A stretch of DNA of 64,000 nt from Oehlia diaphana. Its lineage: Eukaryota; Glomeromycota; Glomeromycetes; Glomerales; Glomeraceae. The notes beneath the pieces were generated by a model, which worked only from the letters and a program-made list of their open reading frames with translations, ran no database searches and was not told where the DNA came from. The stretch spans positions 221,536-285,535 of the forward strand of contig QZLH01000011.1 of NCBI GenBank assembly GCA_003833135.1. The letters are read 5' to 3'. This document shows positions 31,801 through 38,180 of this stretch, in pieces (position 1 is the stretch's first letter; every line of letters begins with the position of its first letter). A program made the position numbers and the translations under genes.

Positions 31801-33475
31801 ATGCATAAAGCTATTATTCTAGTCGGTGGGCCTTCTCGTGGTACGAGATTTCGACCACTTTCTCTTAATATCCCAAAGCCTTTGTTTCCAGTAGCGGGTC
31901 ATCCAATCATCTGGCATCATTTGGAAGCATTATCGAAAATTGAAGAGTTGAAAGAGGTTTTATTAATTGGATTTTATGAAGATTCGATTTTTCAAAAATT
32001 TATTGATGATGCTACAAGAGAATTCCCAAAAATTAATATTCGGTAAATAATGGATTCTTAATTTTAATAATAATTCGCGTCAACATTGATTTAATTTTTA
32101 AAATTTGTTTTAGATATTTTCGAGAGTATCAGTCTTTGGGAACTGCGGGCGGAATTTATCATTTTAGAGATGAAATTCAACGAGGTGATCCAAAACAAAT
32201 ATTCGTGCTTAATGCGGATGTTGCTTGTAGTTTTCCACTGGAAGAAATGATGGAATTCCACAATACACATCAGGGTTTATGTACGATTTTAGGTACAAAG
32301 GTAATTAAATTATAAAAAGAACTTATTATTTTACATTCAATTCATATGTATATAATGTTTTTTTTATTAGGTTGCTCGTGAGGCTGCAAAAAGATATGGA
32401 TATCTTGTTGCTAAACCCGAAAGTAATGAAGTTTTACATTATGTTGAGAAACCAGAAAGCTTTATTTCTGATTTGATTAGTTGTGGTATTTATTTATTTA
32501 ACTGTGACATTTTCAATGAAATGAAAAATGCCATGGAAAATAAACAACATCGAGTCGAGTATCCTTTTATAGATATTCCCATATGGGAATAATATACAAT
32601 TTATTATTACAGATTTCCTTAACTACTTAATTTTGTAAATTAAAGTCGTGATCCGTTAGTAACTACTGATGATGATAAACTTCGATTAGAGCAAGATTTA
32701 CTTCGTTCATTGGCTGAATCTAAGAAATTATATGTCTATGTTACAACCGACTTTTGGAGGCAAATTAAAACAGCTAGGTAAATATTATGGTTATGAATTT
32801 AGTCGTTTATATATAAGGCATAATTTAATTAAATAGAACAATTTATATAAAGTTCTGCAGTTCCTGCCAATGCATTATATCTAGAACAGTATTTGAAAAC
32901 AAACCCTGATCGACTATTAAAAAATGAACAAGGTGGACCAACAATTGTTGGTTGTGTTTATAAACATCCTACAGCATTTGTTGATCCAAGTGCAAAGGTT
33001 TGTTTCTTTATAATATGTAAAAGATTATTTTTTATTCTAAATTTTTTCTTTCATTTTCGATTAGATTGGACCAAACGTAACTATAGGACCTCGTGTAGTT
33101 GTGGGTAAAGGAGTTCGTATCAAGGATTCAATTATTCTTGATAATGTAGAAATTAAAGCGAATAGTTGTATCTTACATAGTGTTATTGGGTGGGGTTCAA
33201 AAATTGGAACTTGGGCTCGTGTTGAAGGCACGCCAGTAACAAATGAAGAAACCGTTATTACACAAAATGGCGTTAAAGTTCAATCGATCACCATTCTTGG
33301 TAAGTTACATTTTAATTTAAATTTTTATCCTTTCATTATGGAGTAAATTTAACCCTCTAAACTTTTCTCAATAGCTAATGAAGTTATGGTCAAAGATGAA
33401 ATTATTATTCGTAATTGTATTGTTTTACCCCATAAAGAATTGAGATCTAATTGTCATAACGAAGTTTTGATGTAA
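31801..33475 (+). CDS. GMPPA: Mannose-1-phosphate guanylyltransferase alpha-type (GMPPA)
   Basis: Seven exons (31801-32042, 32114-32300, 32371-32558, 32646-32777, 32853-32997, 33065-33299, 33375-33475) code for 409 residues. The start [13 protein letters not shown], the active-site region VLNADV, the text [21 protein letters not shown] and the C-terminal hexapeptide-repeat domain ([28 protein letters not shown]) match GMPPA, the regulatory partner of the GDP-mannose-making GMPPB. GDP-mannose feeds protein glycosylation and GPI anchors, the pathway of the PIG-B gene 2.4 kb away. Intron 3 has a perfect U12-type donor and branch site; see its entry. The gene is divergent from the Tim17-family gene, 187 bp apart. 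Confidence 0.94.
32559..32645 (+). other. Candidate U12-type GT-AG intron (GMPPA)
   Basis: 87 nt intron. The donor GTATCCTTTT matches the U12 consensus in all positions and TTCCTTAAC at 32615-32623 is a perfect U12 branch site, with the branch A 23 nt from the AAAG end. Splicing joins GTC GA to T CGT in frame within conserved GMPPA sequence (HRVDRDP). Confidence 0.92.
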
Positions 33476-33814
33476 AAATATTTAAGTAGATTTTTATGCA
33501 TATGGACAATGGTTTTATATTTGTTTTATTTGTTTAGTCTCCTACTTCTCTTAAAATTTAAGAGGGCGAATTGAAATGAAATAGATAAAATATAATTTAT
33601 TCATTATACCAATTTTAAATTATTATTAAAAGGAAAAATAAAATCATAACTAGAGTTTATCTATGAATAAAAGGTATTATAATAAACTAGTTATAGGCGA
33701 GGCATCTATATCTATAGTTTATCCACATTCTACATATAGGATAATTATAATCTTATTTAAATAAAAATTTATATTCAACTTCCCTTCCCACCTTAACATG
33801 CTCTTCTTAAATAT
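33476..33814. other. Convergent intergenic region
   Basis: Between the 3' ends of GMPPA and AP-1 mu. A/T-rich, with no coding signal. A polyadenylation-like AATAAA occurs near 33640. Confidence 0.45.
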
Positions 33815-35769: not shown

Positions 35770-35912
35770 CTTTTATTACAATTTATCTTAAAAACGTAAA
35801 AAATTAAATTTTCCAGGAAAATAGCCCAATTTATGATTGATATCTTGTGTAACACCAATTTTTTTTTTTTTTTTTAAGTTTTATCACTGTGATATTCATA
35901 AAAAATTTAAAC

Positions 35913-38180
35913 ATGAATAAATTAAATTATCGCAAAAAAACCGACACGTCAAATGTAATTGAACAGAAAGAAAATTTTATTGAAGAAAATGAAGAAAATT
36001 TTAAAGAAAAGAAACCATTAAATTTAATTTTAAATAATCAAAATCGATTATTAAGTTGTTTAATTTTATTCCGAATAATAAATGCTATATTTACGAAAAC
36101 ATATTTCAATCCCGACGAATATTGGCAATCAGTTGAAGTTGCCCATTATTTAGTTTTTGGATATCCTAAACTCTTTTATTTAGTTTTTTGTTTTGTAAAA
36201 AAAAAATATACAGTATCATATTATTTCTTAATAAATTTTTTTTTTTTTTTTTTTACATACGGATATTTGACCTGGGAATGGAAGGAGAAAATAAGAAGTG
36301 TCGTTCATCCTTTATTATTCGCAACTCTTTATAAAAATTTGGCAATTCTCGGTCTCGACAAAGGGAACTTGTTTGTAATATCTTGATTCAAGAATTAATT
36401 GAGATTTGAAAATACTTTGATTTATTATTTATTGATATCTAATAGATTAATTTGTAACTAGATATATGCTCCAAGAATTTTTCAAGCGGTATTTGCAGGT
36501 ATAGGAGATTTGTATACTTATAAGTTAGCAAAAAAGTTATTTAATGAATCAACCGCAAATTGGACTGTATCCTTTCTTATTTCTGGCAAAAATGTATATC
36601 AAAAAAGATACATATGTATATATATAATTTTATATTAGACTTTAATAATATAATAATTTGACGCGTTTTTTTTATAATTATAATAGCTTTTCTGTTCTAT
36701 TGTTTCTTGGTTCAATTTCTTTTGTTCGATAAGGATGTTATCGAATAGCATTGAAACTGTAATGACTACTGTGGCATTATATTATTGGCCATGGCCCTCT
36801 TTTTCAAATTTTAAGAGTTGGAATGATCGAATAAAGTATAACTTCTTTTTTATAATTATAATAACCGTGTATATGCTAATTATTAATTATAATTTTATAT
36901 CAATCATATAGAGCATTACGCATCTCGTTAACTTTAGCAGCAATTTGTTGTATTCTCCGTCCAACTAATGTTATAGTTTGGGGATTTCTTGGTATACAGT
37001 TATTATGGAAAACGAGGGAACATCTTATCTCTATTATTTTAAACACGCTGTTTATCACGTAAGTTCTTAAATAGGTTTGTAATTTAAGCGGTATATGATT
37101 TATTAATGTCATATTCTCAATTTTAGAATTATTGCAATTTCAACGATAGTCTTAGTCGATTATACATTTTATGGTGAAATAGTGTTTGTACCGATTAATT
37201 TTTTGTATGTTAATGTAATACAATCAATTTCGCTATTTTACGGTTCGCATCCATGGCATTGGTATTTATCACAGGGTATACCATTTATTACAACTACATT
37301 ATTACCATTCATACTTAAAGGCATATATGATATTTATAATGATAAAAAATTTCCTTCTTATCATCATCAATCTGTTAAAACATTAATTTGGTTAATTATA
37401 TTAATGGTTTTTAGTTATAGTTTATTAAGTCATAAAGAATTTAGGTTTATATATCCATTATTACCTATTATGATAATGTGCGCGGGATATTGTTTACGCG
37501 AAATTACTTTAAGATATCAAAAAAAAATGTCGAGAATAATTGTGATATCTTTGATAATTACCAACATACCATTAGCTTTTTATGCGAATATTATACATCA
37601 GCGTGGTGTTGTGGATGTTATGAATTATTTAAGAAATGAAGCTAGATCAGGAAAAGTTCATGAAATAGGATTTTTGATGCCTTGTAATTCAACTCCCTTT
37701 TATAGTAATTTTCATTTTAATTTATCCATGTGGTATTTAACTTGCGATCCTCCTTTAATGAGGTAGGTTTATTTACACGTTTTTTGATGTATATTATAAT
37801 ATTTCAAAAAAAAATTTTTTTTTTTCTTTAGTAAAGAGATTGATATTGAAAATTATGTTGATGAAGCCGATCAATTTTATAATAATCCACACGAATTCCT
37901 TAAAACATATTTTGAGCCAATTAATTCAACATTATCGTCTACTGATTTAAAACTTCGTAAATGGCCAAATTATTTGATAATGTTTGAAGCTTTATTACCC
38001 AATTTAAATCATTTTCTCGAAAAACTAGATTACAGAGAGGTAAGTTATTAAACTTTTTTTTTCATTTTTGTTGTGCTAATTAATAAACACTTAATAATTT
38101 AGTGCGCGAGATTTTTTAATTCTCATTTTATTGATGATTGGAGAAGGAGAGGTGATGTGATAGCTTTTTGTAAAAATTAA
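35913..38180 (+). CDS. GPI10: GPI mannosyltransferase 3 (PIG-B/Gpi10)
   Basis: Eight exons (35913-36160, 36257-36374, 36462-36566, 36687-36835, 36912-37058, 37127-37762, 37832-38039, 38103-38180) code for 562 residues. It adds the third mannose of the GPI core in the ER membrane (GT22 family). Conserved text: TYFNPDEYWQSVEVAHYLVF, YGYLTWEWKEKIRSVVHPLL, then many hydrophobic segments, SLFYGSHPWHWYLSQGIP and YSLLSHKEFRFIYPLLP. The first ATG in frame is at 35913. Two introns carry U12-type signals. For the first, no AG acceptor lies near the required junction, yet AT-AC ends restore VFGYGYLTWEW exactly. Reading through that intron also stays open but would insert a 32-residue phenylalanine-rich segment into a conserved motif. 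Confidence 0.93.
36161..36256 (+). other. Candidate U12-type AT-AC intron (PIG-B intron 1)
   Basis: 96 nt. The donor ATATCCTAAA matches ATATCCTTT in seven of nine positions and the intron ends TTTAC. TTTCTTAAT at 36224-36232 resembles the branch consensus (7 of 9), with the A 25 nt from the 3' end. Removing these bases gives GG+A, so the frame reads the conserved VFGYGYLTWEW. There is no AG within the last 40 bases that could serve instead. Confidence 0.82.
36567..36686 (+). other. Candidate U12-type GT-AG intron (PIG-B intron 3)
   Basis: 120 nt. The donor GTATCCTTTC matches the U12 consensus fully over nine bases. TAATTTGAC near 36654-36662 is the best branch candidate (6 of 9), with the A 25 nt from the TAATAG end. 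The exons join in phase 0 between NWT and LFCSIVSW. Confidence 0.75.

What the first reader, a model, noticed from the sequence alone, without database searches (positions are those of the whole stretch)
31801..38180. Cluster of U12-type introns in three adjacent genes
GMPPA intron 3, AP-1 mu intron 1 and PIG-B introns 1 and 3 all carry minor-spliceosome signals. Together with intron 1 of the acidic-protein gene there are five among about 139 introns I could place in this window. Three of the donors read GTATCCTTT exactly and one reads ATATCCTTT exactly. In mammals well under one percent of introns are U12-type, and most Dikarya have none; early-diverging fungi are known to keep some. Such local density in a fungus is striking and implies a working minor spliceosome.
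Basis: partly seen in the sequence, partly recalled or inferred. Interest (0 to 1): 0.88.

Follow-up and report, generated by a model that had tools for sequence, protein, structure and literature searches.

The report
Minor-spliceosome introns in Rhizophagus genes
A short stretch of a mycorrhizal fungus genome holds several introns of the rare U12 type, and the genome keeps the RNA machinery to remove them; this is already known for the genus, but some of these introns are mistranslated as protein in deposited gene models.

Summary
Protein comparison or reading frame supports the junctions. One 3' end should probably move 9 bases (6348-6420, not 6339-6420), and PIG-B intron 3 has a U12 donor but no convincing branch site. 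The host is a Rhizophagus. Its genome holds loci over the Rfam cut-off for U11, U12, U4atac and U6atac, plus U11/U12-25K and U11-48K genes, so a working minor spliceosome is well supported; no RNA reads were available. It is not new in kind: Larue and Roy (2023) report 205 minor introns, all four snRNAs and human-like density in R. irregularis, and clustering of U12 introns in the same genes is known in 21 genomes. The local density is unusual but needs no special cause (four genes, two with two introns each). Less expected: AT-AC introns are common (half in the window; 9 of 11 profile-crossed junctions elsewhere, in a strict-motif class), some deposited Glomeromycotina models translate or skip them, and TXNL4B, partner of the AT-AC factor CENATAC, was not found.

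The parts
32559..32645 (+). GMPPA intron 3, U12-type GT-AG, 87 nt, phase 2
   Evidence: GTATCCTTT donor, perfect TTCCTTAAC branch site 23 nt from AG; frame kept to GMPPA exons; also a genome-wide motif hit
35431..35570 (-). AP-1 mu intron 1, U12-type GT-AG, 140 nt, phase 1
   Evidence: GTATCCTTT donor, TTCCTTCAC branch site; junction HNNLY|L without gap against PDB 4hmy_M
36161..36256 (+). PIG-B intron 1, U12-type AT-AC, 96 nt, phase 2, no stop codon in frame
   Evidence: ATATCCTAA donor, TTTCTTAAT branch site 25 nt from AC; removal gives VFGYGYLTWEW as in homologues; two deposited Rhizophagus models carry an insert there
36567..36686 (+). PIG-B intron 3, GT-AG, probably U12-type, 120 nt, phase 0
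   Evidence: GTATCCTTT donor, junction ANWT|LFCSI as in homologues; no branch site above 6 of 9
6348..6420 (-). acidic-protein gene intron 1, U12-type AT-AC, 73 nt (reader: 6339-6420)
   Evidence: ATATCCTTTTTG donor, ATCTTTGAC branch site 12 nt from AC; end set by homologues starting FVNRIDG
   Evidence: ATATCCATTT donor, perfect TTCCTTGAC branch site 18 nt from AC; exact junction in R. irregularis P0242
31801..33475 (+). GMPPA gene (mannose-1-phosphate guanyltransferase alpha)
   Evidence: 415 bits to PDB 7d72_A
33895..35769 (-). AP-1 complex mu subunit gene (3' end approximate)
   Evidence: 550 bits to PDB 4hmy_M over the first 327 aa
35913..38180 (+). PIG-B (GPI mannosyltransferase 3) gene
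   Evidence: 1222 bits, 94% identity to R. irregularis P0001
4447..6684 (-). gene of an acidic protein found only in Glomeromycotina; start approximate
   Evidence: 17 proteins; no Pfam family

Best explanation
These are ordinary U12-type (minor) introns of a Rhizophagus species, removed by a conserved minor spliceosome. Inferred mechanism, from the established pathway: U11 pairs through its 5' AAAAGGG with TCCTTT of the donor, helped by U11-48K; U12 pairs through GUAAGGA with the branch site; U4atac/U6atac with U5 then replaces U11 and the two catalytic steps run as in the major pathway. Shown here: donor, branch and 3' end motifs at junctions fixed by homologues or frame, and the genes for the four RNAs and two of the proteins. 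Inferred: actual splicing by that machine. The cluster is most likely a chance neighbourhood of genes with old introns, sharpened by the known habit of U12 introns to occur more than once in a gene.
For: Six donor/branch/3' end sets with frame or homologue support. Four minor snRNAs over the cut-off, recognition segments intact. 25K: PF18036 51.1 and 32.2 bits in neighbouring exons and E 3e-9 to PDB 8r7n_B, named U11/U12 25 kDa protein. 48K: zinc finger 32.5 bits and E 5e-16 to PDB 8r7n_F. Genome-wide TATCCTTN(30-60)TCCTTRAC occurs 40 times against 13 for the reversed pattern, and the base before it is A 23, G 9, T 4, C 4. In 11 of 25 such loci given to Pfam one profile stretch runs across the junction. 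The same picture is published for R. irregularis (PMC10639083, passages).
Against: No RNA evidence was available. PIG-B intron 3 lacks a good branch site. Branch-to-3' end distances of 23-30 nt for GMPPA, AP-1 mu and PIG-B i1 exceed the 11-13 nt optimum quoted in PMC3584512 (passages). The G excess before the motif is weak on its own (G 9 against C 4, p 0.27), and about 13 of the 40 hits are expected by the reversed control. The 48K zinc-finger family also rang in 2 of 14 control genomes, once over cut-off, so that assignment rests. SCNM1 and CENATAC searches found nothing over cut-off (the CENATAC ones had no positive control). Other U12-specific proteins were not tested.
Confidence: 0.92

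Rival explanations
1. Some of these are U2-type introns whose donors resemble U12 donors by chance, or AT-AC introns spliced by the major spliceosome; PIG-B intron 3 is the best candidate.
For: PIG-B i3 has no branch site above 6 of 9; RTATCCTTT alone is near chance level in the window.
Against: Donor and branch motifs go together in the other five introns, and the three AT-AC ends restore conserved protein or match deposited models.
Confidence: 0.06
2. The cluster marks a co-regulated neighbourhood in which minor splicing controls GPI-anchor, mannose and vesicle-traffic genes together.
For: PIG-B and GMPPA both serve mannose-dependent pathways (recalled) and sit with AP-1 mu; vesicle-mediated transport is over-represented in R. 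irregularis minor-intron genes (33 against 12.8 expected; PMC10639083, Table 3 in a passage).
Against: Multi-intron genes and gene numbers can give such windows without selection; the same paper reports no link of minor splicing with proliferation and favours neutral explanations (abstract).
Confidence: 0.04
3. PIG-B intron 1 is not an intron but a coding insert, as two deposited models have it.
For: 96 nt, no stop in frame, so the read-through frame is open; P0001 and P0003 contain inserts there.
Against: 9 of 14 homologues aligned, fungal and animal, R. irregularis P0002 among them, have no insert (3 have a gap over the region); the inserts of P0001 and P0003 differ; the stretch has a T run, a U12 donor and a branch site.
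Confidence: 0.03

Closest known systems
Minor introns of Rhizophagus irregularis (Larue and Roy 2023, PMC10639083; abstract and passages seen)
   Same: Same genus, all four minor snRNAs, U12 donor and branch motifs, human-like density
   Different: That survey scores annotated introns; here AT-AC introns that some deposited models miss or translate are read from the DNA. U11-48K, found here, is not among the four minor-spliceosome orthologues named in the passage seen, though the paper also speaks of many such proteins
U12-type introns of Phycomyces and Rhizopus (PMC2846911; passages and section 11 seen)
   Same: Early-diverging fungi with AT-AC and GT-AG minor introns; in Phycomyces 9 AT-AC and 8 GT-AG by one method, 8 and 12 by the other (ESTs)
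   Different: About 20 or fewer introns detected there; 205 are published for R. irregularis
Human U12-type introns
   Same: Donor, branch and terminal dinucleotides; several per gene in some genes
   Different: AT-AC about a quarter in human (24% against 69% GT-AG, PMC8280824, passage); branch sites here often lie further from the 3' end

Membership tests
U12-type intron | 5' splice site close to RTATCCTTT | tested here: met
   4 of 6 exact, the other two ATATCCTAA and ATATCCATT
U12-type intron | branch site close to TTCCTTRAY | tested here: met
   7 or more of 9 in 5 of 6; PIG-B i3 has 6 of 9, not met for that one
U12-type intron | short branch-to-3' end distance, optimum 11-13 nt | tested here: inconclusive
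   12 and 18 nt in the acidic gene, 23-30 nt in GMPPA, AP-1 mu and PIG-B i1
U12-type intron | AT-AC or GT-AG termini | tested here: met
   3 AT-AC, 3 GT-AG
U12-type intron | removal in mature RNA, dependent on the U12 snRNP | not testable with these tools
   no RNA reads or mutants; deposited models P0002 and P0242 show the AT-AC splices
minor spliceosome | U11, U12, U4atac, U6atac snRNAs | tested here: met
   71.9, 69.1, 55.7 and 79.8 bits, all over gathering score
minor spliceosome | U11/U12-25K | tested here: met
   PF18036 51.1 and 32.2 bits on C296, three weaker places elsewhere; 80 aa of it match PDB 8r7n_B, E 3.4e-9
minor spliceosome | U11-48K | tested here: met
   PF05253 32.5 bits (2 of 14 control genomes also rang); E 5.4e-16 to 8r7n_F
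minor spliceosome | 65K, 35K, 20K, 31K, ZRSR2 | not tested
   65K, 35K and 20K orthologues are reported in R. irregularis (PMC10639083, passage)
minor spliceosome | CENATAC and its partner TXNL4B | tested here: inconclusive
   CENATAC: no candidates, no positive control. DIM1 family: matches in one gene only, which is TXNL4A-like (313 bits to U5-15kD, 108 to TXNL4B)
minor spliceosome | SCNM1 zinc finger | tested here: inconclusive
   PF15803: two hits, best 17.4 bits, under the 27-bit cut-off

The most novel reading that the evidence does not exclude
In Rhizophagus, AT-AC introns make up half or more of the minor introns, are partly hidden from annotation-based surveys because gene models translate or skip them, and are spliced without the CENATAC-TXNL4B module that promotes AT-AC splicing in human cells. 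If so, published minor-intron counts for Glomeromycotina are too low and CENATAC is not a general requirement for AT-AC introns.
Probability: 0.22. Interest if true: 0.66.

Novelty: new member of a known kind. Interest (0 to 1): 0.36.

Why it matters
It confirms from raw DNA that a Rhizophagus genome keeps all four minor snRNAs and real U12 introns, in a kingdom whose two largest groups lost them. It also shows a practical problem: AT-AC introns in conserved genes such as PIG-B enter protein databases as false inserts or gaps, so surveys built on annotated introns can miss them. The possible lack of TXNL4B and CENATAC beside many AT-AC introns would make the need for that module directly testable.

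Tried and rejected
Rfam over the window alone: nothing over cut-off. CENATAC in the genome by Pfam family and by human protein: no candidates, no positive control, so no claim of absence; a protein-database search with human CENATAC listed 120 of 626 hits, all animal or unnamed, so it said nothing on fungi. SCNM1: nothing over cut-off. Literature on GMPPA with minor introns: no paper held both terms. Papers on Rhizophagus and minor splicing: going by titles and abstract starts, only PMC10639083 treats Rhizophagus among those listed (1 of 1, 15 of 18, 12 of 273); I did not see the AT-AC annotation problem discussed for this genus in the passages read, which does not show that it is unpublished. 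The other RTATCC sites of the window (57 in all) were set aside for weak branch sites or lack of convincing flanking exons, by eye. I looked for paired U12 donors (the USSE element, named in PMC3584512) in the U11-48K gene and saw none. The idea that the cluster is a selected hotspot was not pursued beyond the chance estimate.
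Full report
What was checked. The finding claims five U12-type introns in a 64 kb fungal window. I read the sequence, searched the window's own genome (108.8 Mb, 1672 contigs), compared exon junctions with homologues and solved structures, and looked for the minor spliceosome.

Host. The PIG-B protein of the window is 94% identical to R. irregularis P0001 and 85% to R. clarus P0003, so the genome is a Rhizophagus, close to R. irregularis and perhaps another species.

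The introns. All donors are as stated. PIG-B intron 1 is 96 nt long and free of stop codons, so the unspliced frame stays open; removing ATATCC...AC restores VFGYGYLTWEW. In an alignment of 14 of the 120 listed homologues, 9 have this motif or a near variant without insert, 2 (R. irregularis P0001, R. clarus P0003) carry different inserts that begin like the intron's own reading (YPKL), and 3 have a gap over the region. R. irregularis P0002 shows the exact AT-AC splice but lacks 30 aa around intron 3. AP-1 mu intron 1 joins HNNLY to LLAITKKN, without a gap against PDB 4hmy_M; an acceptor 3 nt earlier would add a residue. GMPPA intron 3 keeps frame between conserved blocks of GMPPA.

A sixth intron and a corrected end. 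Scanning the 57 RTATCC sites of the window, both strands, for open flanking frames and a branch site gave one further good candidate, 5889-5814 on the minus strand. It lies in the acidic-protein gene that already holds intron 1. That gene belongs to a family with 17 hits, all from what I know as Glomeromycotina (only 7991 candidates were scored). Aligning 13 of the 17: P0242 shows the AT-AC splice at both places; P0241 and Gigaspora P0248 agree with P0242 on FVNRIDG after intron 1, which moves its end to 6348; P0243 lacks the exon after the first and the exon before the second intron. Models from R. irregularis (P0241), Ambispora (P0250) and Acaulospora (P0251) read D-I-H-F or D-I-L-F at the second intron, and Ambispora P0250 and Paraglomus P0256 read I-S-F-L and I-S-L at the first. 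I take these as donors ATATCC(T/A)TT translated by gene callers that expect GT-AG; this is inference, as the DNA of those species was not available.

Machinery. One place each over the gathering score for U12 (69.1 bits), U11 (71.9), U4atac (55.7) and U6atac (79.8) (only the best candidates were scored), with U11 AAAAGGG, U12 GUAAGGA and the U6atac AAAGGAGAGA segment kept. U11/U12-25K is present (PDB 8r7n_B E 3.4e-9), and U11-48K (PDB 8r7n_F E 5.4e-16; the zinc-finger family alone also rang in 2 of 14 control genomes). 48K is not among the four minor-spliceosome orthologues that Larue and Roy name for R. irregularis in the passage seen.

Genome-wide. TATCCTTTN(35-65)TTCCTTRAC occurs 13 times against 3 for the reversed pattern; TATCCTTN(30-60)TCCTTRAC 40 times against 13. 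The base before the second pattern is A 23, G 9, T 4, C 4: A over T is a clear excess (p 0.0003), G over C is not by itself (p 0.27). The two searches give 34 loci with A or G there. I gave junction peptides of 25 to Pfam, choosing the 3' end by open frame and by eye; 8 were left out and GMPPA was compared with a structure. In 11 of 25 a single profile stretch crosses the junction: nine AT-AC (UQ_con, PAXNEB, MIF4G_like, RabGAP-TBC, STX6_10_61_N, CDC45, DHHC, MT-A70, VPS51_Exo84_N) and two GT-AG (DER1, DNAPKcs_CC5); RabGAP-TBC is under its curated cut-off (23.4 against 25.2). Of the other 14, two have weak crossing stretches that I do not count (L037, TPR_12 21.6 bits under its cut-off; L018, FMP23 at E 0.06), one has a profile beside the junction only (L036), and the rest have none. 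Contig C1358 holds three hits within 7 kb on one strand; one is DNAPKcs_CC5, the other two I read as the same gene without profile support.

AT-AC share. Three of six in the window and nine of eleven in the strict class are AT-AC. The strict class is probably biased, since AT-AC introns tend to have the cleaner motifs (recalled), so the true share is open. Human has about a quarter; Phycomyces 9 of 17 by one method and 8 of 20 by the other.

Branch distance. Over 17 introns (the 11 above and the six of the window, including PIG-B i3, whose branch site is doubtful) AT-AC distances run 11-34 nt, GT-AG 21-30 nt; Mann-Whitney p 0.044, chosen after seeing the data. The quoted optimum is 11-13 nt.

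Density. The 542 comes from R. irregularis figures. Counted by genes (4 of an assumed 25) the number of such windows ranges from 0.07 to 28 with the assumed share of minor-intron genes. A tendency of U12 introns to share genes was found in all 21 genomes tested (passage). I see no need for a special cause.

TXNL4B. CENATAC promotes AT-AN splicing in human cells and co-occurs most strongly with TXNL4B (passages). The DIM1 family matched a single gene here (four exons), which is TXNL4A-like: 313 bits to U5-15kD against 108 to TXNL4B. CENATAC searches were uninformative. This is a lead, not a finding of absence.

Verdict. Real, well explained, already described for the genus in kind; the partly hidden AT-AC introns and the TXNL4B question are the parts worth following.

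Noticed in passing
L001 1501-1664 (U12 snRNA, minus strand): The segment pairing with the branch site reads GUAAGGAU where the Rfam consensus has GUAAGGAA; the first base of the branch motif looks free in the 32 A/G-donor hits (T 14, A 13, C 4, G 1, close to base composition).
   Followed up: partly
G000:C1358:7946-14678, loci L051, L023, L052: Three U12-like introns within 7 kb on one strand, perhaps in one DNA-PKcs gene; only L052 has profile support.
   Followed up: partly
G000:C48:20536-21215, L056-L059: The only DIM1-family gene found is TXNL4A-like; TXNL4B not seen.
   Followed up: partly
window 4447-6684, minus strand: The acidic-protein gene belongs to a family without Pfam match, found only in Glomeromycotina, yet holds two AT-AC introns, whereas minor introns are reported mainly in evolutionarily older genes (PMC10639083, passage).
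   Followed up: partly
P0001, P0003, P0241, P0250, P0251, P0256: Deposited Glomeromycotina proteins contain short peptides that look like translated U12 donors or introns.
   Followed up: partly
G000:C643:27336-27410, L010: U11-48K gene in Rhizophagus, with the block AEQRDYKRRRKSYRAKN shared with the human protein.
   Followed up: yes
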